DNA from: Fusobacterium sp. IOR10
Lineage (GTDB): Bacteria > Fusobacteriota > Fusobacteriia > Fusobacteriales > Fusobacteriaceae
Assembly (NCBI RefSeq): GCF_010367435.1
Contig: NZ_WJWY01000006.1
Coordinates: 1-64,000 of the forward strand
Length of the DNA: 64,000 bases
Direction of reading: 5' to 3'
Shown: positions 182-62,660 of the stretch, piece after piece
How positions within the stretch are numbered: the first letter of the stretch is position 1
Layout: the number at the start of each line of letters is the position of its first letter
The notes under the pieces: generated by a model
Seen by the model: only the letters and a program-made list of their open reading frames with translations
Told to the model about the DNA's origin: nothing
Database searches by the model: none
Made by a program: the position numbers and the translations under genes

Positions 182-210
182 TTTAAAATAGTCTAAAGTT
201 GTGATATAAT
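182..210 (+). promoter_or_regulatory. Promoter of the DUF116-TPR-TonB cluster
   Basis: A consensus -10 TATAAT (205-210) is preceded by TG one base upstream (extended -10, TGATATAAT). A weak TTTAAA lies 17 bp further upstream. The predicted start is about 30 bases before the ATG at 248, and GAGGTG provides the ribosome site. No terminator is visible between here and about 12.9 kb, so this promoter could feed a long operon. Confidence 0.55.
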
Positions 211-247: not shown

Positions 248-787
248 ATGACCAAAACATTTTTTCACAAGATCATTTATAGTTGCTATTATATTTCATA
301 TTTAATGAGTGAAAAGAAAATTCATGACCAAAAGAAAAGAAATAATGTAGCTGTAAATTTTGTGAAATATAACAATAAATTAGTTTTAAAAAATATAAAT
401 AAGCAAGAAATAAAAAATATTTCAATTCTTTTACCTCATTGTATTCAAAGTTATGATTGCAAATATAAAATAACATCTAATATTGAAAATTGTGTTAGAT
501 GTAAAAAATGTAAAATCTATAGATTTTTAGAGTTTAAAGAAAAATATAATGTTGATGTGAAAATAGCCACAGGTGGAACATTGGCAAGATTGTATTTAAG
601 GGAAAAGCATCCAGATTTTATTATTGCAGTTGCATGTAAAAGGGATTTAATTTCTGGTATTTATGATGCATTTTCTCAGAATATATATGGAATATTTAAT
701 CAAATAGTGGGATCCCCTTGTATAAATACTGATATAGATTTAGATGAGGTGGAGGAAATATTGAAAAAATTATATTATAAGGAGTGA
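248..787 (+). CDS. DUF116 family protein
   Basis: This is a 179-residue protein of the DUF116 family, whose function is unknown. The diagnostic pattern is present: an LPHC segment (C65), C71, a CVRCKKC cluster (C82, C85, C88), a central ATGG glycine motif, AVACKRDL (C130) and SPCINT (C158). Seven such cysteines suggest metal or Fe-S binding, which is inference. The N-terminus is hydrophobic and aromatic and may be a membrane segment. GAGGTG precedes the ATG by a good distance. The stop overlaps the ribosome site of the next gene, so the two are probably co-transcribed. Confidence 0.8.
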   Translation: MTKTFFHKIIYSCYYISYLMSEKKIHDQKKRNNVAVNFVKYNNKLVLKNINKQEIKNISILLPHCIQSYDCKYKITSNIENCVRCKKCKIYRFLEFKEKYNVDVKIATGGTLARLYLREKHPDFIIAVACKRDLISGIYDAFSQNIYGIFNQIVGSPCINTDIDLDEVEEILKKLYYKE

Positions 788-792
788 TCAAT

Positions 793-3693
793 TTGAAAAA
801 CCCAAGATTAATGAAGATTGCTTTAATTATTTCAATTATTACAAATGTTGCCTATGGGGATATGAAGGATGATTTAAGTAATTTAAACACTTTATACTCT
901 AAAGGACAGTATAGTAAAGCAGTTATTAAATCTAAAAAATTTATTATGGAATATCCCCAGTCAAAATATAATAAAAATCTAGCACTTAGAATATGTAAAG
1001 TTGAATATTTAAATAAAAATTATTCAAAATCCAGTGATTCCTTTGAAAATCTTTTGAGAAATTACAAATTAGGAAGAAGTGAGAGAATGGAAGTTTATTC
1101 ATATTTATATAGAATAAACAAATTATATGGGAATATTCAAAAATCCAGTTACTATGAAGAGTTGTTAAAGAAAAGAAAAAAAAGTTATGAAGATGCACTT
1201 TTTAGAACAGGAATGTTACTTGTGGACAACGAGAATAATATTTCAGCTATTAAGGAATTTAAAAAGGCAATCTCTTTAAAGGGGGATAATTATGAAGACA
1301 GTTTCCTATATATGTCCCTTGCATATGTTAATATTAAAGAGTATAAGGAAGCCCTAGGTTATATAAATAAGTATTATAACTTTAAGAACAAGAAAAAACC
1401 TGAAAATATAGTTTTAGCAAAGTATATACTAGGAACTATTAGCTATAAGAAAAATGATATTGAAACAGCAATAAAATATTTTTCATCTTTAATAGAAAAT
1501 AATCCTGGTTATATATACACTGAAAAGGGAAAGGTTTCCTTAATTGAGATATATTTAAATAGTGGAGATATACAAGAGGCTTTAAAATTATATCCAACTA
1601 TAGAAAATACTTACTTAAAAAATCAAAGTTCCAAAGTTGTGGGAAACTATTTTCTTTTAAGGGAGCAGTTTGAAAAGGGAATAGAATATTATGAAAAGAT
1701 AATAGGGAAAAAGGATGATGAAAGTAAGTATAACTATGCCTACGCCCTTTATAAAATTGGAAATTATTCAAAGGCTATAGAGGAATTTACAAGTATACAG
1801 GGAAGATATTACACATTTAATAAAAGATATTATATTATTTTATCCCTAGATAAAAACAAGGACTATGAAGCAGTTATCAATTATGAAAAATATTTAGAAG
1901 ATTATGTTTCAGACAGTGAAAAATATAATGATTTAAGAATGGTGCTATTAAATGCCTTTTATGAATTAAAAGATTATGAAAAGGCAAATAACTATATAAA
2001 AGAAATATATACAGATTATTCAACTGCAAAGAATATGAGTAAATATATATTGATCACCAGTGAAATTGGGGACAAGGATAAAATTGAAGAATTATTTAAA
2101 GACTATAAAAACCTTTACAAGGAAGATGAAGAATATAGAAGAGAAATTTATTTGGCAGTTGCAGATTTTGAAATTTCAAGAAATGATTTAATCTCAGCTG
2201 AAAAGGCATATGTGGATTATTTAAAAACCCATGATGACAAGGAAATAAGAGGAAAATTAATAGATCTTTTAATTAACCAAAAAAAATATGCAGTTACAAT
2301 TAAATATTTAGACAGTCAAGAAAATACAGAGGACAACATTTATTTAAAGGGTATTGCCTATATTGGAATAGGAAAATATGAAAATGCAGATAAATTATTT
2401 AAAAGTCTTTTGGAAAAAACTTCAAATAATGTTTTACTTGAAAAAACAAAGTTCAATATTATAAAAAATTATTTCCTATGGGAAAAATACAAGGAAACAA
2501 TTAAAGAGGGAAAATTCTATTTAGATAATAACAATGATTATTTAACTTCTGAAGTTTTAAACAGGGTAGCAATAAGTTATTATAGGCTTGGAGATTATAA
2601 TAATGCTAGAAAATATTATGAAAAATTAGGAAAGGACTCTAATTTCCATTCCTATTCTAAGTATCAAATAGCAGATTCATACTACACTGAAAAAAATTAT
2701 AAGAAAGCTTTAGAGCTATTTGAAGAAATAATAAATTCAAATGAAATAAAGGGTTATAAGGAAATAGCTAAGTATTGGTCTATAAGCTGTTACTTTAACT
2801 TGGAAAAATTTGATGAATATTTAATGGAAAGTAAAGAATTTCTAGATGATTATCCAAATTCAGTATATTATAAAACTGTTCTTTTAAAAAGAGGGAAATA
2901 TTTATCTGAAACAAAAAATTATGATGAGGCTATAGAGGAGTATGCATCTCTATTTAAAAAGGAAACTGATGTTTTAGAAAAGGATAAAATACTAGAAAAT
3001 ATCCTAGATGTCTATATTTTACAAGATAATATAGACTCTGGAAAAGAATGGATAGATAAGATTCATAATAAGTTTAAAAAAAGCTATTACAGTTCTCATT
3101 ATTACAGAAAAAAAGGTATGACAGGAAAAGCTTTAAATGAAGATAAAATTTTATTAGATAGTAAATTTTACAGGGATTATGCTCTTAAAAATTTAGGAGA
3201 GTATAATTATGAAATAAAATCATATGATAAGGCTAGAAAATATTATAGTGAAACTTTAAAATTAGATTCTAGTATATACAAAGATTTAGCCACATTTAGA
3301 CTAGCTTATTTAGATAAGAATGATAAAAAATATGAGGAATCTCTAAAGGGCTTTACCAAGGTAATAGTTATTTATCCTCAAAGCAAATATGTAACACTTT
3401 CTAAGATAAATATATGTGGAATATACGAGGCTCAAAATAATATTGATAAGGCTATAAAGGCATACAAAGAAGTATATAATGATCCAAATGCTGATTCATA
3501 CTTGGAATATTTAGTTGAGAAATTATTAATCTTGTCCCTAAGAAAGGAAGATAAGATAAATTCTGATAAATATTATAATGAACTTACTGGATTAAATAAA
3601 GAAACTGTAAAAAAATACGAACAATTTTTAATTAAAGACAAGGAGGAGATTACAGATGAAAAAAATGTTAGTAATAATGATGCTAAGTTGTAG
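793..3693 (+). CDS. Large exported tetratricopeptide-repeat protein
   Basis: This protein of about 966 residues is made almost entirely of TPR-like helical repeats. Repeated patterns such as YYEKLG, AxxxYxxxL and GxYxxAxxxF run from about residue 20 to the end. A short N-terminal hydrophobic stretch ending near VAYGD looks like a signal peptide, so it is probably periplasmic or envelope-associated. The start is uncertain. GTG at 784 overlaps the AAGGAG ribosome site, whereas TTG at 793 lies 8 bases after it and is preferred; ATG at 811 is a third option. It precedes a small exported protein and exbB-exbD-tonB, which suggests a scaffold in the same envelope complex (inference). It resembles TPR/YbgF-like partners of Tol/Ton systems only in general architecture. 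Confidence 0.75.
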   Translation: MKNPRLMKIALIISIITNVAYGDMKDDLSNLNTLYSKGQYSKAVIKSKKFIMEYPQSKYNKNLALRICKVEYLNKNYSKSSDSFENLLRNYKLGRSERMEVYSYLYRINKLYGNIQKSSYYEELLKKRKKSYEDALFRTGMLLVDNENNISAIKEFKKAISLKGDNYEDSFLYMSLAYVNIKEYKEALGYINKYYNFKNKKKPENIVLAKYILGTISYKKNDIETAIKYFSSLIENNPGYIYTEKGKVSLIEIYLNSGDIQEALKLYPTIENTYLKNQSSKVVGNYFLLREQFEKGIEYYEKIIGKKDDESKYNYAYALYKIGNYSKAIEEFTSIQGRYYTFNKRYYIILSLDKNKDYEAVINYEKYLEDYVSDSEKYNDLRMVLLNAFYELKDYEKANNYIKEIYTDYSTAKNMSKYILITSEIGDKDKIEELFKDYKNLYKEDEEYRREIYLAVADFEISRNDLISAEKAYVDYLKTHDDKEIRGKLIDLLINQKKYAVTIKYLDSQENTEDNIYLKGIAYIGIGKYENADKLFKSLLEKTSNNVLLEKTKFNIIKNYFLWEKYKETIKEGKFYLDNNNDYLTSEVLNRVAISYYRLGDYNNARKYYEKLGKDSNFHSYSKYQIADSYYTEKNYKKALELFEEIINSNEIKGYKEIAKYWSISCYFNLEKFDEYLMESKEFLDDYPNSVYYKTVLLKRGKYLSETKNYDEAIEEYASLFKKETDVLEKDKILENILDVYILQDNIDSGKEWIDKIHNKFKKSYYSSHYYRKKGMTGKALNEDKILLDSKFYRDYALKNLGEYNYEIKSYDKARKYYSETLKLDSSIYKDLATFRLAYLDKNDKKYEESLKGFTKVIVIYPQSKYVTLSKINICGIYEAQNNIDKAIKAYKEVYNDPNADSYLEYLVEKLLILSLRKEDKINSDKYYNELTGLNKETVKKYEQFLIKDKEEITDEKNVSNNDAKL

Positions 3694-4003: not shown

Positions 4004-4612
4004 ATGTACTGGATAAAAAACGGTGGAGCATTAATGTATTTTATAATCTTAATGTCTGTACTAGGAACTGGGGTAATAATAGAAAAATTTATATATTTTA
4101 AAGTTTCAGAAAAGAGAAAGTTTGACGATTTAAAGGAAGAAATTAATGAATATTTGGAAAAGGGAGATTTACCAGGTGTGATAGAATATTTAGGTAAAAC
4201 TAAATGTTCCACAGGTAAAGTTCTTAAGGAAGTATTTACATCATGTAATAAAGACACAAAAAGTATTGTTGTGTTAGAAGAAAAGGCAAGGGAACAAGCT
4301 CTAGCTCAAATTCCCCGTTTGGAAAAAAATATGTGGATACTTTCTATGGTAGCCCACGTTACACCTCTTATTGGGTTATTAGGTACAGTTACAGGGATGA
4401 TTAAAGCCTTTCAAGCTGTTGCAATTCACGGAACAGGGGATGCTTCAATATTAGCTGAAGGAATCTCAGAGGCTTTATTTACAACTGCAGGGGGTCTATT
4501 TGTAGCTATACCAGCTCTTATTATTTATAACTACTATAATAAAAAAATAGATGACATTGTAAATGATATGGAAAAGGGTAGTGTTGAGGTAATAAACTAT
4601 TTTAGGAGGTAA
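4004..4612 (+). CDS. exbB: ExbB/TolQ-type proton channel subunit
   Basis: This 202-residue MotA/TolQ/ExbB family inner-membrane protein, together with ExbD, uses the proton gradient to energise TonB. Three hydrophobic helices are visible, at about residues 7-30, 107-133 and 150-175. The last two carry the family signature, with HVTPLIGLLGTVTGMI and ALFTTAGGLFVAIPALI. The cytoplasmic loop lies between helices 1 and 2, as in the family. GGAGG precedes the ATG. It is followed five bases later by exbD and then tonB. TolQ is the alternative name, but the TonB-like third gene and the absence of TolA/TolB/Pal favour ExbB. Confidence 0.9.
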   Translation: MYWIKNGGALMYFIILMSVLGTGVIIEKFIYFKVSEKRKFDDLKEEINEYLEKGDLPGVIEYLGKTKCSTGKVLKEVFTSCNKDTKSIVVLEEKAREQALAQIPRLEKNMWILSMVAHVTPLIGLLGTVTGMIKAFQAVAIHGTGDASILAEGISEALFTTAGGLFVAIPALIIYNYYNKKIDDIVNDMEKGSVEVINYFRR

Positions 4613-4617
4613 GTAAT

Positions 4618-5052
4618 ATGAAATTTCAAAATTTCAGAAGACGTAATAATAAAAATATCGTTTTAGAATTAACTCCTCTTATAGATGTAGTTTTCTTACT
4701 TCTTATATTTTTTTTAGTGGCAACAACATTTGAAGATGTTGATACAGGTATAAAAATAGAGCTTCCAAAATCAACAATAAGAGAATTAAAACCTGTTAAA
4801 GATTTACAAATTAGTATAACAGGGAAAAAGACTATTTATTTAAAATATAAGGATGGAAAGGAAAATAAAAAGGTAGTTGTTAAGAAGGGAAATCTTAAGG
4901 GAAAATTAGCAAAGGTACTTGGAGAGTCAGAAAGTAAGAATGTAATTATTAGTGGAGACAAATCTATAGACTATGGATTTATTGTTGAAATTATGACAAT
5001 TTCCAAAGAAGCTGGTGCAGAGGAATTAGACATTGACACAGTATTAAAATAG
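4618..5052 (+). CDS. exbD: ExbD/TolR-type biopolymer transport protein
   Basis: This 144-residue protein has one N-terminal membrane helix (about residues 21-38) and a periplasmic domain. The helix begins with LTPLIDVVFLLLIFFL. Its Asp (D23) is the conserved residue of the proton pathway in ExbD/TolR. The periplasmic part is short and Lys-rich and ends with the family-like segment in which GADK is replaced by SGDKSIDYGFIVEIM. It is the obligate partner of the upstream ExbB. A ribosome site, GGAGG, lies just before the ATG. Confidence 0.9.
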   Translation: MKFQNFRRRNNKNIVLELTPLIDVVFLLLIFFLVATTFEDVDTGIKIELPKSTIRELKPVKDLQISITGKKTIYLKYKDGKENKKVVVKKGNLKGKLAKVLGESESKNVIISGDKSIDYGFIVEIMTISKEAGAEELDIDTVLK

Positions 5053-5062
5053 GAGATAATTT

Positions 5063-5941
5063 ATGAAAATACAAAAAAGTGATGCAATTTCATTTTCTTT
5101 GGCTATTATTATAAATTTAATAATTCTTATCTGTATACCAGGCTTAGATAAAGTAGAGGATGTAAAGGATAAAAAATTAAAAGTTGGACTAGTTGCTCTA
5201 GAAAAACAAAAATATACATCTAAAGCTAAGGACAAAGCGATACCAAATAAGAAAAAAGCTGAGAAAAAAGAAATATTAGATACAACTAAACAAGATTTAA
5301 TAGAGGAAAGAAAGAGAATAAAAAGAGAGAAAAATTTAAATCTTATGAAAATTTCAAAGTCTTTAAAGACACCTTCTCTAGATGTTTTAACCTCTAATAA
5401 ATCAGCTATTAACAAAAAATTAAATTCTATAAAGTCTGATGAAAAAAGCTATAAAGAGCAGGTTAAATTAGAAAGGGAAGATAGTGATGGAGTAAATAAA
5501 AATAGTTCTATCTTCAATGACTCTAAAATAATTGATAAAATTGCTTCAGAATCAAAGGATGAAGCAATAGATATTAAAAACAAAAATGGAAGTGGAGATA
5601 TAGAGGTAAAGGAAGGAAAAGTTGAAGGACTTCCTAGTGGATACAAATTAGGAGTTGAAGATGCAGAAATCATAGCTAGATGGGATGGATCTAACAAGGA
5701 ACCTAAGTATCCAGAGAAAGCTGAACTTTCAGGAATGCAAGGAACTGTAAAGGTTAAACTTGACATTGATGCAAATGGTCGAGTTATTAATTTAATTATG
5801 GAAAAGGGAAGTGGAGTACCTGAAATAAATACAGCTATAGAAACCATTGGAAGAACTTGGAATATATATCTAAGTAAAAGAGGTCAAAGAATTAAAGGAA
5901 AGGTAATATTAGAGTATTCTTTTAAACTAAAGGGAATATAA
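5063..5941 (+). CDS. tonB: TonB family energy transducer
   Basis: This 292-residue protein has the TonB layout. A membrane anchor lies at about residues 9-28. A long charged Lys/Glu/Ser-rich linker follows (about 30-200), rather than the classical Pro-Glu/Pro-Lys linker. A C-terminal TonB domain (about 210-291) carries PKYPEKAELSGMQGTVKV and a later GSGVPEINTAI, matching the family pattern. It should span the periplasm and transmit ExbB/ExbD energy to outer-membrane receptors. No TonB-dependent receptor lies in this window, so the transported substrate is unknown. It is third in the exbB-exbD-tonB set. Confidence 0.88.
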   Translation: MKIQKSDAISFSLAIIINLIILICIPGLDKVEDVKDKKLKVGLVALEKQKYTSKAKDKAIPNKKKAEKKEILDTTKQDLIEERKRIKREKNLNLMKISKSLKTPSLDVLTSNKSAINKKLNSIKSDEKSYKEQVKLEREDSDGVNKNSSIFNDSKIIDKIASESKDEAIDIKNKNGSGDIEVKEGKVEGLPSGYKLGVEDAEIIARWDGSNKEPKYPEKAELSGMQGTVKVKLDIDANGRVINLIMEKGSGVPEINTAIETIGRTWNIYLSKRGQRIKGKVILEYSFKLKGI

Positions 5942-5956
5942 AACAAGGGGGATAAA

Positions 5957-7348
5957 GTGAAATTATTAGGTTTTAGATTGGAAGATGAGTTAGCAGAAAA
6001 GCTAGAAAATAATATGGATAATGAATTAAACGTTATTAATAATGTTACAGAGTTCATGGATACAGTAAAGGGAAAAAAATATGAGTGTATTTTAATAGAA
6101 GAAATGCAACTACCTTCAGAAACTTTAATAAATATTATAAGAAAAGTTGAAGAATTTCAAAAGAAAGCTGTTATAATAATACTTGGTCAAAGTTCAAATC
6201 TAAAAGTAGTAGCAGGAAGTATTAAAGCAGGAGCCTATGATTATATTTTAAAACCAATATCAAGTGAAGAAGTTATTAAAATTATTGAAAAATCTGTAAA
6301 GGATCATAAATTATTAGCTGAAAGAGTTGATAAGAATAAAAATACAGGGGATAAGCTTATAGGTCAAACTAAGGAAATAGTTGAAGTATATAAGAAAATA
6401 GGAAAGGTTGCAATAAATAAGGTTCCAGTTTTAGTAGTAGGTGAAAAGGGAACTGGAAAGAGAAGTGTTGCAAATGCAATACACCAATTTAGTGATGCTT
6501 CTAAAAAACCATTTATAAGTATCAACTGTACTTCATTTCAAAATTCTTTGTTAGAAAGAAGATTGTTTGGATATGAAAAGGGAGCCTTTGAAGGAGCAGT
6601 ATTTTCCCAAGCAGGGGATTTGGAAAAGGCCAATAGTGGAACTTTACATCTTGGAAATATTGAGTTTTTAAACTTGGACATTCAATCAAAAATCCTTTAT
6701 TTATTACAAGAAAAGGAATTTTTTAGAATGGGTGGAGCAGATCCTATAAAAACTGATATTAGAATAATAGCAACTACAAGTGCAAATTTAGAAGAGGCAA
6801 TAACAAATGGGGAATTTATAGAAGAACTATATTTAAAATTAAGGGTTCTAGAAATTAATATTCCACCACTAAGAGAAAGAAAGGACGACATTCCCTTTAT
6901 AATAGATAGATATTTAGTTGATTGTAATGCAGAACTTCATAAATCAGTTAAGGGAATTAGTAAACCTGCTTTGAAAAAAATAATGAGATATGATTGGCCT
7001 GGAAATGTTAATGAATTAAAAAATGCAATGAAATCTGCTGTTGCCTTGTGTAGAGGAACTTCAGTATTAATTGAGGATTTACCAAGTAATGTTTTGGGAA
7101 ATAAACCAGTTAAGAGAAAGGGAGACATTCAAAATTGGATACTTGGAGATTGGATAGAAGGGGAAATAACAGCATATAAATCAAATGGGAAAACAGCTTA
7201 CTATACACATATAATTTCAAAGGTTGAAAAGGAACTAATAAGACAAGTTTTAGAAATAACCAACGGAAAAAGAGTAGAAACTGCTGAACTATTAGGAATT
7301 ACTAGAAATACCCTTAGAACAAAAATGGGTAATTATGAGTTAGATTAA
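5957..7348 (+). CDS. Degenerate sigma-54-activator-like regulator (receiver-AAA+-Fis HTH)
   Basis: This 463-residue protein has NtrC-like architecture: a receiver-like domain (1-115), an AAA+ sigma-54-interaction domain (about 135-375) and a C-terminal Fis-type helix-turn-helix (TAELLGITRNTLRTKM). Key residues are altered. The phospho-acceptor position is in IEEM (E48/E49) rather than Asp, although K99 remains. GAFTGA reads GAFEGA (209-214). Walker B GTLFLDEI reads GTLHLGNI (G233, N234). The arginine-finger segment FREDLYYRL reads FIEELYLKL (I288, K294). Walker A (GEKGTGKR) keeps its lysine. ATPase activity and sigma-54 contact are therefore unlikely; a sigma-70-type repressor or activator role, as in TyrR or Rhodobacter NtrC, is inferred. 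The start is GTG, after an AAGGGGG site. It follows tonB by 15 bases. Confidence 0.85.
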   Translation: MKLLGFRLEDELAEKLENNMDNELNVINNVTEFMDTVKGKKYECILIEEMQLPSETLINIIRKVEEFQKKAVIIILGQSSNLKVVAGSIKAGAYDYILKPISSEEVIKIIEKSVKDHKLLAERVDKNKNTGDKLIGQTKEIVEVYKKIGKVAINKVPVLVVGEKGTGKRSVANAIHQFSDASKKPFISINCTSFQNSLLERRLFGYEKGAFEGAVFSQAGDLEKANSGTLHLGNIEFLNLDIQSKILYLLQEKEFFRMGGADPIKTDIRIIATTSANLEEAITNGEFIEELYLKLRVLEINIPPLRERKDDIPFIIDRYLVDCNAELHKSVKGISKPALKKIMRYDWPGNVNELKNAMKSAVALCRGTSVLIEDLPSNVLGNKPVKRKGDIQNWILGDWIEGEITAYKSNGKTAYYTHIISKVEKELIRQVLEITNGKRVETAELLGITRNTLRTKMGNYELD

Positions 7349-7381
7349 GTAATTTAACTTAATTTTATGAAGGGGGCTATT

Positions 7382-8839
7382 GTGCAAACAACGCTATATA
7401 GGAAATATAGACCTAAGAACTTTGAAGAAATAGCAGGGGAAGCTGATATAATAAGAACTTTAAAAAATTCTTTAGATAATGATAGAATGTCTCAAGCTTA
7501 TCTTTTCTGTGGACCAAGGGGAATAGGGAAAACAACATGTGCAAGACTTATTGCAAAGGGAATAAATTGTATTAACAACGGAATTAGCAGTGTTCCTTGT
7601 AATGAATGTGAAAATTGTAAAGCTATAGACAATGGAAGTTTTATAGATTTAATAGAAATAGATGCTGCTTCAAATAGGGGTATTGATGAAATAAGAGATT
7701 TAAAGGAAAAAATAAATTATCAACCTAGTAAAGGTAGAAAAAAAATATATATAATTGACGAGGTTCATATGTTAACTAAAGAGGCATTTAATGCTCTTTT
7801 AAAAACTTTAGAAGAACCACCTGTTCATGTTATATTTATACTAGCAACAACTGAACCAGATAAAATTTTACCTACAATTATATCAAGATGTCAAAGATAT
7901 GATTTTCAAATTTTAACACCTAAGGAATCTAAAGATAAGCTTAAAGAAATTTGTGAAGCTGAAAAAGTTGTAATAGATGATGGAAGTTTAGAACTTATTT
8001 ATGACATATCTGGGGGAAGTATGAGAGATGCAATATCTGTACTTGAAAGAGTCATTGTATCTTGCCTTGGTAATGAAATTAAAGAGGAAGACACTAGTAG
8101 AATCCTTGGTTCAACTTCAAAGACTTTGTTAAAGGAGTTTTATGAAACTATAAAGTCTGGATCAATGATGAATGGAGTTAAGTTTTTAGATAAACTATGG
8201 GAAGAATCCTTTGACATTGAAAAATTTTTCAAGGATTTTGCAAGATACATGAAGGATTCCTTGGTAAATGAAAGTGTGAAAGTGGAAGAGGGACTAAATA
8301 TAATTGGAAAAGTTTACGATTCATTAAATAAGTTTAAATATGAAGAGGATAAGAGACTTTTAGGTTATGTTGTTTTAAATAATTTATTAAAAAAAGAACC
8401 TAGAACAAGTGGTAATGAAGAAAAAGCACAAATAAAAGAAATAATAAAGGAAAAAATTGTGTATAAGGATTCTAAGGAAAAGAATTCTAGAAAGAAAGAA
8501 AAAGTAGATGTTACAATAGAAGATATAAAATCAATGTGGAATGATATTGTGGATAAGGCAAAGAGTAAAAAACCTCCTTACGGGGCTTTTTTAATAACAG
8601 CAAAACCAACTAAAGTAGATAATGGATTCCTATACATAGATTTAGGAGACAGTTTATTTGCAAAGGATCAACTTGAAAGTGAGTACTATAATATTCCTTT
8701 TCAAGATATAGTTCAAAGTATGACAAAATCTAAAATAAAAATGAAGTATACAGTAGCAGAAGAAAAAAATGAAATAGAAGCAAGTGATGATGATACACTG
8801 TCTAAAGTAGTGGACTTCTTTTCAAGGGGAGAAGATTAA
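7382..8839 (+). CDS. dnaX: DNA polymerase III subunit gamma/tau
   Basis: This is the clamp-loader ATPase of about 485 residues. It shows the DnaX N-terminus (TTLYRKYRPKNF), Walker A GPRGIGKTT, a zinc-binding cysteine group (CINNG...PCNECENC), Walker B IYIIDEVHML with the adjacent NALLKTLEEPP, and the sensor segment ISRCQRYDF. The tau-like C-terminus is short and charged. The usual annotation would start at ATG 7367, but the AAGGGGG at 7370-7375 sits between that ATG and the GTG at 7382. GTG 7382 also gives the family-typical N-terminus, so it is preferred. The stop overlaps the next start by one base (TAATG). Confidence 0.93.
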   Translation: MQTTLYRKYRPKNFEEIAGEADIIRTLKNSLDNDRMSQAYLFCGPRGIGKTTCARLIAKGINCINNGISSVPCNECENCKAIDNGSFIDLIEIDAASNRGIDEIRDLKEKINYQPSKGRKKIYIIDEVHMLTKEAFNALLKTLEEPPVHVIFILATTEPDKILPTIISRCQRYDFQILTPKESKDKLKEICEAEKVVIDDGSLELIYDISGGSMRDAISVLERVIVSCLGNEIKEEDTSRILGSTSKTLLKEFYETIKSGSMMNGVKFLDKLWEESFDIEKFFKDFARYMKDSLVNESVKVEEGLNIIGKVYDSLNKFKYEEDKRLLGYVVLNNLLKKEPRTSGNEEKAQIKEIIKEKIVYKDSKEKNSRKKEKVDVTIEDIKSMWNDIVDKAKSKKPPYGAFLITAKPTKVDNGFLYIDLGDSLFAKDQLESEYYNIPFQDIVQSMTKSKIKMKYTVAEEKNEIEASDDDTLSKVVDFFSRGED

Positions 8840-9681
8840 TGAATAAAAAGATGATAAAGTATAGTTTAATTTCAATTTTATTGTATAGTTTAGCTATGAT
8901 AATACCAGTTGCTGGTTTTATGTTACCAAGCTATAAAATAAAAAATGGTTTAGCTTTTACTTTGAAAGAACATATACTTACAAATATAGTTATAATAGCA
9001 GGAATAGCTGTTACTAGCTATGAAAATGCTTTAATATATGTATCGATTTTTTTAACAATAGAAATAATGTTTTATGTATTTAAGGATGCTAAGATTAAGA
9101 ATTCAAGATTTAAAATTTTTGATAGAATGGTTATAACTTCTATAATATCAACAATTTTAATTGTAATATGCATGGGATTATTAAAAACAGATATACTAGA
9201 AATCAAAAAATTAGTTGAAGATATGTATGTTAATAATTATAAAATGTCAGAAACAGATTTAAAACTAGTCTTTAATTTTATTAGAGATTATAAATATTTC
9301 CTTATTTATACTTATGTTGGTCTTATGACTTATTTAACATATTTATCAAGGGGGAGAAAGCATTATAGTGGCTGGAACCTATCATATATATGGGTATTAT
9401 TTTATATTATTCCATTTATAGGAAAAGAATATTTTGGTATGGATAGTTTGTTATTACAAAACATTTTACTTATAACAAAAATATCTTATATTGTATATGC
9501 AGCTAAAATATTATATAATCTTATAGGGACTAAAATAAGATTTGATATTTTAAAACATGTACTTTCAATAGTCATAGTTTTTTATTTCCCTAATGTTTTC
9601 TTTATATTAGGGGGACTAGCAAGTTTTAAAATAATAAAATTTAACGTGATCAAAGAAGACAATAAAAAAAATAAGAAATAA
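8839..9681 (+). CDS. DUF2232 polytopic membrane protein
   Basis: This 280-residue protein is strongly hydrophobic with about seven or eight membrane segments and no catalytic motif that I recognise. Its position directly before rplI and dnaB matches that of YybS/DUF2232 proteins in many Firmicutes, where gdpP usually intervenes; here gdpP is absent. Family assignment rests mainly on topology and context. Start and stop are firm: the ATG overlaps the dnaX stop, implying translational coupling. Confidence 0.65.
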   Translation: MNKKMIKYSLISILLYSLAMIIPVAGFMLPSYKIKNGLAFTLKEHILTNIVIIAGIAVTSYENALIYVSIFLTIEIMFYVFKDAKIKNSRFKIFDRMVITSIISTILIVICMGLLKTDILEIKKLVEDMYVNNYKMSETDLKLVFNFIRDYKYFLIYTYVGLMTYLTYLSRGRKHYSGWNLSYIWVLFYIIPFIGKEYFGMDSLLLQNILLITKISYIVYAAKILYNLIGTKIRFDILKHVLSIVIVFYFPNVFFILGGLASFKIIKFNVIKEDNKKNKK

Positions 9682-59058: not shown

Positions 59059-60510
59059 CTATTCCTCCTCTGTAATATTTAATTTTTTCATATATGTTTC
59101 TTGTTCTTCTTTGGATAATTTTGCTATACCAATACCAGTGAAAGCTAAAATTATTGCTATAACTATTCCTAAATAGTTTAATATTGCCCAAGGAGCATAG
59201 GAAAAAGTTGAAACTCCAAGTGTTGCAGTCATATAGGCTCCTGCTGCAGACCAAGGAACCAATGGAACTAATACAGTACCTGAATCTTCAAGTGTTCTTG
59301 ATAAGTTTTTAGGATGTAACCCTCTTCTAACATATGTAGCTTGAAATAATTCACCAGGTATAAGTATTGTTAAATAAGAACTTCCTGTAACAAAGGCCAT
59401 TGTGAAACATGATAAAATAGTAGAGTTAATTATACCAGCTGTTGTTTTTACTCTAGAAAGTATTTCTCCTAATACAACATCTAACATTCCTGAAACACTT
59501 ATAATTCCAGCAAAACCCATAGCACAAAATATTAATACTGTAGTTCCTGTAACAGATACTACTCCACCTCTATTTATTAATCTAATTACATCTGGCATAA
59601 CAGTTCCTTGAAAACCTGTCATATTAATATTGAAACCTTTAACTAAAGCAGCAAAACCATTTTTCAAAGTAAACCCTTGAACTATAACCCCTAAAACTAC
59701 TGAAAACAAACTTGTTCCAAGCATAGTTGGAATAGATGGCCATTTTTTAACTGAACCAATTATAATTAATAAAACTGGAAGTATTAATATTATATTCCAA
59801 CTGAACATATTGTCAAGTTGAGATAATAACATTGTAACTTTTTCAGGAGTTGCAACTTCACCAGTTGCCTTTAATCCAACAAATAAATAAATAACAATTG
59901 AAATTAAAGCTGCTGGTATTGTTGTATAAAGCATATGTCTTATATGTTCATATAATTCACTTCCTGCAGCTATTGGAGCAAGATTTGTAGTATCTGAAAG
60001 AGGTGATAATTTATCTCCAAAATAAGCTCCTGCAACAATGGCACCTGCTGTGGCAGGTAATGAAACTCCAAGACCTCCAGCTATTCCCATAAGAGCAACA
60101 CCTATAGTTCCTGCACTTCCCCAAGAAGTTCCTGTAACTGTTGAAACTAAAGCTGTTATTAGAAAAGATGTTACAAGTAAAAATCTTGGATTTACAATTT
60201 GAACACCATAGTATATAATCATTGGAACTGTTCCTGAGAACATCCAAGAACCAATTAATAATCCAACACTCCATAATATTAATGTGGCTGGCATTGCCTT
60301 TCCAATTTTATCAATAATTGCTTCTTGCATTTCTTCCCAAGTATAGCCCAATCTTAAAGCTAATATTCCTGCAACAAAGGCAGATAAAATCAGAATAGGC
60401 TCTGTTCTAAATCTTAAATATCCATATCCTATAGATAGGGCTAAAATCATAAATACAATTGGAAATAATCCCTCTTTAACCGTTGGTTTTCTTTTTACAT
60501 TTTTCTTCAT
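59059..60510 (-). CDS. nhaC: NhaC-family Na+/H+ antiporter
   Basis: This 483-residue membrane protein has 11-12 helices and NhaC motifs: VSTVTGTSWGSAGTIGVALMGIA (TGTSWGSAGTIG core), IVAGAYFGDKLSPLSDTTNLAP and later LVPLVPWSAAGAYMTATLGV. Members exchange sodium for protons or, in the MleN branch, couple Na+/H+ to organic acid exchange such as malate/lactate. Because it is co-expressed with IadA, an aspartyl-dipeptide or amino-acid-related transport role is possible (inference). GGAGGG precedes the ATG. A -24/-12 promoter lies about 40 bases upstream. Confidence 0.92.
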   Translation of the reverse strand: MKKNVKRKPTVKEGLFPIVFMILALSIGYGYLRFRTEPILILSAFVAGILALRLGYTWEEMQEAIIDKIGKAMPATLILWSVGLLIGSWMFSGTVPMIIYYGVQIVNPRFLLVTSFLITALVSTVTGTSWGSAGTIGVALMGIAGGLGVSLPATAGAIVAGAYFGDKLSPLSDTTNLAPIAAGSELYEHIRHMLYTTIPAALISIVIYLFVGLKATGEVATPEKVTMLLSQLDNMFSWNIILILPVLLIIIGSVKKWPSIPTMLGTSLFSVVLGVIVQGFTLKNGFAALVKGFNINMTGFQGTVMPDVIRLINRGGVVSVTGTTVLIFCAMGFAGIISVSGMLDVVLGEILSRVKTTAGIINSTILSCFTMAFVTGSSYLTILIPGELFQATYVRRGLHPKNLSRTLEDSGTVLVPLVPWSAAGAYMTATLGVSTFSYAPWAILNYLGIVIAIILAFTGIGIAKLSKEEQETYMKKLNITEEE

Positions 60511-60545: not shown

Positions 60546-60562
60546 AGCAATTTCAATGCCAA
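60546..60562 (-). promoter_or_regulatory. Sigma-54 (-24/-12) promoter of nhaC-iadA
   Basis: The minus strand reads TTGGCATTGAAATTGCT. It has the invariant GG and GC at exactly ten-base separation and matches TGGCACG-N4-TTGCT except at two positions. The predicted start is near 60535, about 25 bases before the nhaC ATG. A sigma-54 activator gene is divergent from it. Confidence 0.85.
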
Positions 60563-60584
60563 AGCTTTTATTTTCTTCATTGGA

Positions 60585-60599
60585 ACATAAAACCTATGT
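60585..60599. promoter_or_regulatory. Candidate activator-binding inverted repeat
   Basis: ACATA-AAACC-TATGT forms a short inverted repeat about 25 bases upstream of the -24 element. Enhancer sites for sigma-54 activators usually lie further upstream, so this is only a candidate. Confidence 0.25.
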
Positions 60600-60716
60600 A
60601 TTTTCTATTTTAAAACACAAAGCTAAAATAAAATTTTTAATAAAAATCATATATTTTAAATTTATTTATGTTATACTAATACAACACCAAAATATATCCA
60701 AAACAAAGGAGAAATT

Positions 60717-62660
60717 ATGAAAGTTATAACGTTAATAGCAGGAACTTATGTAACTAAAATCAATCTATTAAAACAACTTAAAGATTTATTGTTTGAAGAT
60801 GTTATTATTAATGGATATTCTTTGGATGAGATTGGAGAAAATGAAATTAATGGAGATTTAATAGTTTTCTCAAGCAATTATACATTTGAAAAGGTAAAGA
60901 AAAGAAAAATAAGTTTCCAATTAAAAAATTCAATTGTTGCTAAGAGAACAATAAATTATAACAATATTGATATTTTGTTCAATATAAAAGACAGAAATGA
61001 AGTTATTTTTGTAAATGACTCTAGGGAATCCACATATGAAGCTCTTACATCATTGGAAGAAATAGGTATAAAGCACATTAAATTCATACCCTATTATCCT
61101 GAAAAATCAGGAATTATTAAAAAATTTAAAATTGCAGTAACTCCAGGGGAAGTGGACAAGGTACCACCCTTTGTTGAAAAAATATATGATATAGGATCTA
61201 GATTAATTGAAATGGAAACTTTAATATTAATATTAAATAAGTTGGACTTATTCTCTTTAAATAGTAGTAGAATATCAAATAATTTTCTAAATAAAATAGT
61301 AAAATTAAATGAAGAAAAGCATAGGACCATGAGAAAAGAAAAGGAGAAGAGGGATAGTTTATTTAACATTATAGACACCCTTGATAAAAATTATATTATT
61401 TTCTATAAGGATGAACTGCAAGAGTTTTCCTTTGAAAATGATATTGTAAAACATATAAAATTACAAATTAAATATGAAAATTCTAAAAAATACTTAAAAC
61501 AAGGGGAAATACTGGAATTTTTAAAGGATAAAAATAACTTTTCAAAGACAGCATTAATAAACAACAGTAAATTTATTTTAAAAAAGAATATATTTAACAA
61601 ATTCACATATATAAGCATATATAAGGAAGACATGCATTTGGAATCAAATTTTAAAGGTAAGTATTTTCTAAATCATATAATTGGGGAATCTGAAAAAATA
61701 GTTAGTTTAAAAAATAAGATAGAAAAATTATCCAAAAGTGAAATAACTGTTTTGCTAGAAGGGGAAACAGGAACAGGGAAGGAACTTTTTGCATCTGCTA
61801 TACATAATTCTTCAAGTAGAAAAAATAATCCATTTATTCCTATTAATTTTTCATCATTAAATGAAACTATTATAGAAAGTGAACTTTTTGGCTATGAAAA
61901 GGGAGCCTTTACTGGAGCAAGTCCAAAGGGGAAAAAGGGATTCTTTGAACTTGCTCAAGGGGGGACAATATTCCTTGATGAAATAGGGGATATAAGTTTA
62001 AAGATACAGTCAAGACTCCTTAGAGTTTTAGAAGAAAAGGAAATAGTGAGAATAGGAGGAGAGAAAATAATTCCAATAGATATTAGAATTATAGGAGCTA
62101 CAAACAAGGATATTTATCAAATGTGCAAGGAGAACAGATTCAGGAAGGATTTATACTATAGATTGAGAAGCGGATACCTAAGAATACCTCCCCTAAGGGA
62201 AAGGAAAGAGGATATTGAAACTATTATAGAAGACTTCCTAGTTAAAAATTCCTATGAAAACTATGAAATTTCAAAGAAGGCTATGGATTTTTTAAAAAAT
62301 TATCCATGGGAGGGAAATGTAAGGGAATTAATAAATACAATATCTTACGCTATACTTTTAAGTGATTCTAATTTAATAACCATAGACACCTTAATGGAAA
62401 ATGATTTTCTAAAAGATAAGATAAAATGTGGAAAAGAAAAAAGAATTTTCAATAGGGAAGAAATAAAAAAAGATATATTAAATATTATAAAGGATCACTG
62501 TATTAAGGAAGTTTCCATAGGAAGAACTAAGATATTCAAAATTCTAAAGAACACATACAACATAAGTGAGTATAAAGTTAGAAAATTAATAGATGAGCTA
62601 AAGGAAGAGGGAAGAGTGGAACAGGGGAAAAAAAGCCAAGGTATTAGATATATCAATTAA
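60717..62660 (+). CDS. Sigma-54-dependent transcriptional activator
   Basis: This 647-residue regulator has an N-terminal sensory region (1-310) without a receiver domain. It resembles the input part of PrpR-like proteins only loosely, and its signal is unknown. The AAA+ domain is intact: Walker A GETGTGKE (about 347-354), GAFTGA (about 396-401), Walker [13 protein letters not shown] and arginine fingers in FRKDLYYRL. The C-terminus (about 590-647) is not Fis-type but looks like a winged helix: [33 protein letters not shown]. It is divergent from nhaC-iadA, which has a -24/-12 promoter, and is therefore its likely activator. Confidence 0.93.

What the first reader, a model, noticed from the sequence alone, without database searches (positions are those of the whole stretch)
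5957..7348. Sigma-54 activator-like protein that has lost all catalytic hallmarks
The protein keeps a receiver-AAA+-Fis layout. However, GAFTGA is GAFEGA, the Walker B DE pair is GN (233-234), both arginine-finger positions are I288 and K294, and the receiver Asp is replaced by Glu. Walker A and the DNA-binding helix are kept, so the change is selective rather than random decay. Known parallels are TyrR and Rhodobacter NtrC, which act on sigma-70 promoters. Its position between tonB and dnaX suggests control of envelope or replication genes.
Basis: partly seen in the sequence, partly recalled or inferred. Interest (0 to 1): 0.6.

Follow-up and report, generated by a model that had tools for sequence, protein, structure and literature searches.

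The report
Motor-dead transcription regulator of Fusobacteriaceae
A bacterial gene-switch protein of a kind that normally burns ATP to start transcription has, in one bacterial family, lost the parts that burn ATP and touch its partner factor sigma-54, yet evolution still strongly preserves it, so it probably works simply by binding DNA.

Summary
ORF 5957-7348 (463 aa) is an NtrC-type receiver-AAA+-Fis protein with GAFEGA for GAFTGA, GN for Walker B DE, I288/K294 for the two arginines, and also N352 for the sensor II Arg. In 32 same-family loci (two more decayed g7 loci counted apart) none keeps the GAFTGA Thr, the DE pair or the first arginine, while dN/dS is low and the HTH is the best conserved domain. 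At the same operon position (exbB-exbD-tonB-X-dnaX) a sister family carries an intact copy that branches first, so the loss is derived. Fourteen family genomes keep the gene without a detectable Sigma54_CBD match, so it cannot need sigma-54 there. Most likely it is a motor-dead DNA-binding regulator of ordinary sigma-70-type promoters; no target or activity is shown. E. coli DhaR is the closest motif parallel; TyrR keeps its DE and arginines. A 2011 survey already noted a Glu-for-Thr EBP in sigma-54-less F. nucleatum. A second bEBP family of these bacteria (F2) shows a parallel, milder loss. Verdict: real; a new variant of a known kind; target genes unresolved.

The parts
5957..7348 (+). ATPase-dead NtrC-type regulator (F1 family), 463 aa
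5957..6310 (+). pseudo-receiver domain (aa 1-118); acidic pair replaced by R7-L8, Asp position E48
6440..6463 (+). Walker A GEKGTGKR (aa 162-169), Gly and Lys kept in 36 of 36, Glu replaced by R169
6581..6598 (+). L1 loop GAFEGA (aa 209-214)
6653..6658 (+). Walker B acidic pair replaced by G233-N234
6818..6838 (+). arginine hand (RxDxxxR) replaced by I288-E-E290-L-Y-L-K294
   Evidence: motif defined in PMC3419264
7010..7012 (+). sensor II Arg replaced by N352
7199..7345 (+). Fis-type HTH region (aa 415-463), the most conserved domain
182..210 (+). sigma-70-type promoter-like site with TG before the -10, upstream of the operon
   Evidence: consensus match only
248..787 (+). DUF116 protein, first operon gene
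784..3693 (+). TPR protein
4004..4612 (+). exbB
4618..5052 (+). exbD
5063..5941 (+). tonB, ends 15 nt before the gene
7367..8839 (+). dnaX-like gene, starts 18 nt after the gene
   Evidence: name from reading the sequence

Best explanation
It is a sigma-54-independent DNA-binding transcription regulator descended from a working sigma-54 activator. SHOWN from sequence: the residues for ATP hydrolysis, inter-subunit catalysis and sigma-54 contact are gone in all family sequences read; an intact copy sits at the same locus in a sister family; the gene outlives rpoN in several genera; the HTH and the AAA+ domain are under strong purifying selection. INFERRED: it binds operators through its Fis-type HTH as an oligomer; the AAA+ domain is a scaffold that may still bind nucleotide (Walker A kept) without hydrolysing it; because loss of the arginine hand makes PspF a constitutive hexamer (PMC3419264, passages) the ring may be static; it represses or activates sigma-70-type promoters by occlusion or contact, without remodelling. 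The pseudo-receiver is unlikely to be switched by ordinary Mg-dependent phosphorylation. Target genes are unknown.
For: Motif table over 36 of the 56 genomes with the gene; intact positional orthologue L034 and partly decayed L035; tree with the family at 100/99 and L034 splitting first; 14 of 54 family genomes with the gene lack a Sigma54_CBD match; in the 14 genomes given to, 24 of 25 Sigma54_activat matches above 150 bits belong to this family or to F2; low dN/dS; HTH mean identity 0.82 against 0.67 for AAA; AAA+ part of the model fits solved bEBP AAA+ domains at 1.3-2.4 A; in the own genome 5 of 7 consensus sigma-54 promoters lie beside bEBPs with Thr/DE/Arg kept, none beside this gene; PspF changes at D107, E108, R162, R168 cut ATPase about 90-fold or more, R162K about 20-fold (PMC3419264); E. 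coli DhaR shows nearly the same set of losses and is called sigma-70 dependent in PMC3162934.
Against: No binding site, target, DNA-binding or nucleotide measurement exists. The gene is cleanly absent from G008 and G021, whose operon is otherwise present with tonB followed directly by dnaX, so it is not indispensable. Family F2 also has HTH above AAA conservation (0.89 against 0.67) while keeping most catalytic residues, so that ratio alone does not mark a dead motor. Some of the sigma-54-less genomes are drafts (4 of the 14 under 90% complete).
Confidence: 0.62

Rival explanations
1. It still works in the sigma-54 system as a negative partner: it forms mixed rings with intact bEBPs or competes with them for DNA, damping sigma-54 promoters.
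For: The window's genome still has rpoN and other bEBPs with their motifs; AAA+ fold kept.
Against: 14 of 54 family genomes with the gene have no Sigma54_CBD match and almost no other strong bEBPs.
Confidence: 0.08
2. It is a DNA-binding architectural or replication-linked factor rather than a regulator of promoters.
For: dnaX follows directly in 20 of 22 loci and dnaB lies further down; the HTH is the most conserved part.
Against: dnaX is detached in the two g11 loci, while exbB-exbD-tonB stays; gene order by itself shows no function.
Confidence: 0.12
3. It is a ligand-controlled regulator like FleQ or VpsR, with c-di-GMP as its signal.
For: FleQ and VpsR are among the solved matches; GGDEF proteins occur in 9 of 12 genomes tested.
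Against: G007, G011 and G025 have the gene but no GGDEF match. Another ligand is not excluded.
Confidence: 0.04
4. It is a decaying relic without function.
For: All catalytic motifs lost; absent from G008 and G021.
Against: dN/dS 0.01-0.11 over the whole protein in 28 within-genus pairs; open frame in all 56 genomes, no inner stops; fixed replacement residues.
Confidence: 0.03

Closest known systems
E. coli DhaR
   Same: bEBP-type AAA+ with GAFTGA gone, LEK for Walker B LDE, S and A at the two arginine positions, sensor II Arg gone, Fis-type HTH; called sigma-70 dependent in PMC3162934 (passages).
   Different: DhaR has other N-terminal sensory domains and a known target operon (recalled); here a pseudo-receiver, and the L1 loop keeps its length in most family members.
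E. coli TyrR
   Same: bEBP-type AAA+ without GAFTGA; called sigma-70 dependent in PMC3162934.
   Different: TyrR keeps LDE, FREDLYYRL and the sensor II Arg: only the loop is lost.
Rhodobacter capsulatus and Caulobacter NtrC
   Same: Receiver-AAA+-Fis, GAFTGA deleted, act at sigma-70 promoters (PMC10274813, passages).
   Different: Their receiver phosphorylation matters, and in Caulobacter Walker A and B are needed (same passages); here the acidic pair and Walker B are lost.
EBP of Fusobacterium nucleatum ATCC 25586 noted by Francke et al. 2011
   Same: Glu for Thr in GAFTGA, no sigma-54 in that genome, sigma-70 dependence proposed (PMC3162934, passages); probably a member of this family.
   Different: The passages report only the loop residue and call it orthologous to PhhR; whether it is this gene could not be tested (one search found no record).
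NtrC1 of Aquifex (1ny5, 4l4u)
   Same: Best match among solved structures by sequence and fold.
   Different: A complete sigma-54 activator with GAFTGA, DE and both arginines (alignment).
Family F2 of the same bacteria
   Same: Intact in G038 and G037, GAFTGA Thr lost in Fusobacteriaceae, pseudo-receiver, very conserved HTH.
   Different: A separate branch of the tree; arginines kept and Walker B mostly kept.

Membership tests
Sigma-54 activators of the NtrC type (bEBPs) | receiver + AAA+ (PF00158) + Fis HTH layout | tested here: met
Sigma-54 activators of the NtrC type (bEBPs) | GAFTGA with Thr or Ser at position 4 | tested here: not met
   GAFEGA; 0 of 32 family loci have Thr or Ser there
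Sigma-54 activators of the NtrC type (bEBPs) | Walker B DE and the RxDxxxR arginine hand | tested here: not met
   G233-N234, I288, E290, K294
Sigma-54 activators of the NtrC type (bEBPs) | occurs together with rpoN | tested here: not met
   14 of 54 family genomes with the gene have no Sigma54_CBD match; the window's own genome has rpoN
Sigma-54 activators of the NtrC type (bEBPs) | ATPase activity and opening of a sigma-54 promoter | not testable with these tools
   needs purified protein
Sigma-70-acting bEBP-like regulators (TyrR, DhaR, HupR, VpsR, some NtrC) | bEBP fold with a defective GAFTGA loop | tested here: met
Sigma-70-acting bEBP-like regulators (TyrR, DhaR, HupR, VpsR, some NtrC) | regulation of sigma-70 promoters | not testable with these tools
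   no target known; upstream motif scan negative
Pseudo-receiver (atypical response regulator) | receiver fold without the acidic pair | tested here: met
   R7-L8 here, E7-I8 in L034; receiver modelled with high confidence
Named NCBIfam equivalogs (NtrC, AtoC, TyrR, DhaR and others) | score above the curated cut-off | tested here: not met
   0 of the 25 families shown reaches its cut-off (72 matched, 25 shown)

The most novel reading that the evidence does not exclude
In Fusobacteriaceae two separate bEBP lineages, this one (F1) and F2, both intact in sister families, were released from sigma-54 in parallel while rpoN was still present, were kept as sigma-54-independent regulators inside housekeeping operons (F1: exbB-exbD-tonB...dnaX; F2 in several genera: rseP...ppiD-dnaG-rpoD), and are nearly the only strong bEBPs left where rpoN is now missing. 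F1 went furthest and became a static pseudo-ATPase ring whose nucleotide, if any, is structural.
Probability: 0.35. Interest if true: 0.6.

Novelty: new variant of a known kind. Interest (0 to 1): 0.45.

Why it matters
It offers a natural series at one fixed locus, from an intact sigma-54 activator (L034) through a partial loss (L035) to motor-dead forms under strong selection, with natural sigma-54-less hosts. That makes directly testable how an AAA+ transcription activator turns into a plain DNA-binding regulator, and whether its old regulon survives the change, in a family that includes Fusobacterium. It also warns that PF00158 annotation ('sigma-54-dependent regulator') is wrong for this gene.

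Tried and rejected
Operator search: exact inverted repeats (arms of 6, gaps 2-11, at least two G or C per arm) in 22 stretches upstream of the operon: none is shared by more than 2 loci (L049 and L132, near relatives; the repeats there look like terminators of the upstream gene). A simple scan of up to 330 bases per locus; sites elsewhere are not excluded.

Sigma-54 promoters in the outgroups: the consensus matches in G038 (5) and G037 (4) fall inside reading frames and gave no regulon.

c-di-GMP as a general ligand: weakened by 3 of 12 genomes without GGDEF. Relic without function: rejected by dN/dS. Dependence on sigma-54: rejected. The genome-contig scan returned, besides L049 and L050, bEBPs of other phyla, used only for alignment and model.

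Rows dropped: L036 and L037 (g7) are left out of the 32-locus counts because their AAA+ domain is much more diverged, and L034 and L035 because they belong to other families; all four are reported apart. Of 56 genomes with the gene 36 sequences were read. dN/dS is a simple NG86 script on 28 within-genus pairs; many dS values exceed 1, so the ratios are approximate. Domain identities are averages that count close relatives many times.

Full report
WHAT IS THERE. ORF 5957-7348 on the + strand encodes 463 aa with Response_reg, Sigma54_activat, AAA lid and Fis-type HTH domains. Against 38 related proteins from the search for related loci, D233, E234, R288, R294 and R352 are columns conserved in at least 90% of rows. 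Further losses are the sensor II Arg (N352), the sensor I Asn (S275), the Walker A Glu (R169) and the middle Asp of the arginine hand (E290); the Gly and Lys of Walker A are kept in 36 of 36 sequences. The AlphaFold model (39-row alignment, mean pLDDT 89, pTM 0.57) has a confident AAA+ core that fits solved bEBP AAA+ domains at 1.3-2.4 A, so the fold is predicted to be intact.

WHOSE GENOME. The window is the start of contig C6 of G000, 2.03 Mb. Two genomes of the same family could be named by equal contig lengths: G025 with a Fusobacterium gastrosuis record and G017 with a Fusobacteriaceae bacterium UBA2433 record. G000 has rpoN. Six other bEBPs of G000 that I read keep Thr in the loop, DE and both arginines (L038, L039, L041-L044; L038 and L039 read GTFTNA), and so does the one at 60717-62660 in this window. 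Of 7 consensus sigma-54 promoters in G000, 5 lie beside such bEBPs (C4, C6, C9, C13, C26), one of them at window 60546-60561; none lies near this gene (neighbour positions).

ORTHOLOGUES. At E up to 1e-72, 56 of 96 genomes of the order have the gene: 54 of 61 in f1, plus G038 (f3) and G037 (f2), and 0 of 33 in f4. I read 36 of the 56. In the 32 f1 loci outside g7, position 212 is E 15, K 9, P 3, F 3, Q 2; 233 is G 29, A 3; 234 is N 31, S 1; 288 is I 31, S 1; 294 is K 25, R 6, T 1; 352 is N 20, R 5, T 4, S 2, Y 1. In g7 (L036, L037) the loop is erased. L034 from G038 is fully intact (GAFTGA, LDE, FRDDLYHRL, NIREL) and L035 from G037 is partly decayed (APFSDG, FEE, first Arg kept, second Lys).

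SAME LOCUS. In 22 loci from 22 genomes exbB and exbD lie upstream in 22, tonB was recognised in 21 (in L139 an unrecognised 283-aa ORF takes its place), and dnaX is next downstream in 20, the exceptions being the two g11 loci L138 and L145. This includes L129 (G038, intact) and L130 (G037), so intact and dead forms are positional orthologues. A maximum-likelihood tree groups all 36 at 100/99, with L034 splitting first when the F2 family and paralogues are taken as outgroup (91/95 for the rest; L035 and the g7 pair have long branches and their exact place is unsure). The loss is therefore derived, and the different replacement patterns of L035, g7 and the rest suggest more than one route (inference). 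In G008 and G021 tonB is followed directly by dnaX: the gene is cleanly absent.

SELECTION. NG86 dN/dS over 28 within-genus pairs: AAA 0.00-0.08, HTH 0.00-0.08, receiver 0.00-0.20, whole protein 0.01-0.11 (dS often above 1, so approximate). Mean pairwise identity over the 32 loci: receiver 0.52, AAA 0.67, lid 0.72, HTH 0.82; to the intact L034: AAA 0.48, HTH 0.75. The AAA+ domain is thus kept for something other than hydrolysis, and the DNA-binding part most of all. As a caution, F2 shows the same order (AAA 0.67, HTH 0.89) although it keeps most catalytic residues; in one trio of ordinary bEBPs AAA was not below HTH (0.90 and 0.74 against 0.87 and 0.68).

INDEPENDENCE FROM SIGMA-54. Two rpoN domain models were searched (PF04552; PF04963). 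Of the 54 f1 genomes with the gene, 14 have no PF04963 match: G007, G011, G012, G014, G015, G017, G019, G020, G030, G031, G033, G079, G083, G084 (G020, G031, G083 and G084 are under 90% complete). With PF04552, G012 and G015 give only weak matches, the other 12 none. One search was given 12 of these 14 (not G083, G084) plus G008 and G021, which lack both gene and rpoN: 25 Sigma54_activat matches exceed 150 bits; 11 are this family, 13 are F2, and one (G017:C49) is neither. So ordinary bEBPs are nearly all missing where rpoN is missing, while these two families stay. Since the window's genome and most of the family still have rpoN, release from sigma-54 probably came before rpoN loss (inference; vertical descent of rpoN was not tested).

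PSEUDO-RECEIVER. The acidic pair is absent here (R7-L8) and in L034 (E7-I8), so ordinary phosphorylation control was probably gone before the motor was lost. The Asp position is E in 20 and D in 12 of 32.

MECHANISM. In PspF, single changes at D107, E108, R162 or R168 lower ATPase about 90-fold or more (R162K about 20-fold), and changes in the RxDxxxR hand give constitutive hexamers (PMC3419264, passages and table). Here every one of these positions differs. I infer no useful hydrolysis and possibly a nucleotide-independent ring. GAFTGA mutants mostly fail to activate transcription (PMC7175178, passages). With sigma-54 contact and hydrolysis gone and the HTH kept, binding to operators at sigma-70-type promoters is the simplest remaining function. 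The operon itself has a sigma-70-type site with TG before the -10 at 182-210, and similar sites are seen by eye in relatives.

WHAT IS KNOWN. E. coli TyrR, fetched here, lacks the loop but keeps LDE, both arginines and the sensor II Arg; DhaR lacks the loop and has LEK, S, A and F at the corresponding places. DhaR is therefore the closest motif parallel. Francke et al. 2011 (PMC3162934, passages) reported that F. nucleatum ATCC 25586 lacks sigma-54 and has an EBP with Glu for the GAFTGA Thr, and proposed sigma-70 dependence; it is probably a member of this family, which I could not test. My paper searches on Fusobacterium with sigma-54/rpoN, Fis family/ExbB, or NtrC/response regulator, and on Fusobacteriaceae with sigma54 (listings only) showed no functional study of this gene in the open library; subscription papers are not covered.

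LIMITS. No target, operator or activity is shown. Names of neighbours such as dnaX and the upstream dnaN-like gene rest on my reading of the sequence; exbB, exbD, tonB, DUF116 and TPR on Pfam. The label DUF2232 used for 8839-9681 is recalled and has no Pfam match.

Noticed in passing
G000:C14:21125-22423 (L040; L192:7039-8430), L149-L154, L156-L161, L163, L193-L201: A second bEBP family (F2) is intact (GAFTGA, LDE, both arginines) in G038 and G037 but has lost the GAFTGA Thr in the Fusobacteriaceae read (S, P, Q, I or L there), with arginines kept and Walker B mostly kept. In the own genome it lies between rseP-like and ppiD-dnaG-rpoD-like genes.
   Followed up: partly
window 60546-62660: A bEBP with intact motifs (60717-62660) beside a consensus sigma-54 promoter on the opposite strand (60546-60561), 36 nt upstream of the gene 59059-60510.
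   Followed up: partly
L186, L187 (G021, G008); L129, L130 (G038, G037): After dnaX these operons hold extra genes, among them a GGDEF protein of 525-582 aa; in G021 and G008 also a Lon-like protease next to rplI and dnaB.
   Followed up: no
L178 (G020), L174 (G007): Other bEBP-like proteins with erased GAFTGA loops in sigma-54-less genomes, possibly remnants.
   Followed up: no
L138 (G016), L145 (G027), L188 (G034): In genus g11 dnaX is not next to this gene, and in G034 dnaX lies without the exbB-exbD-tonB block on its contig.
   Followed up: no
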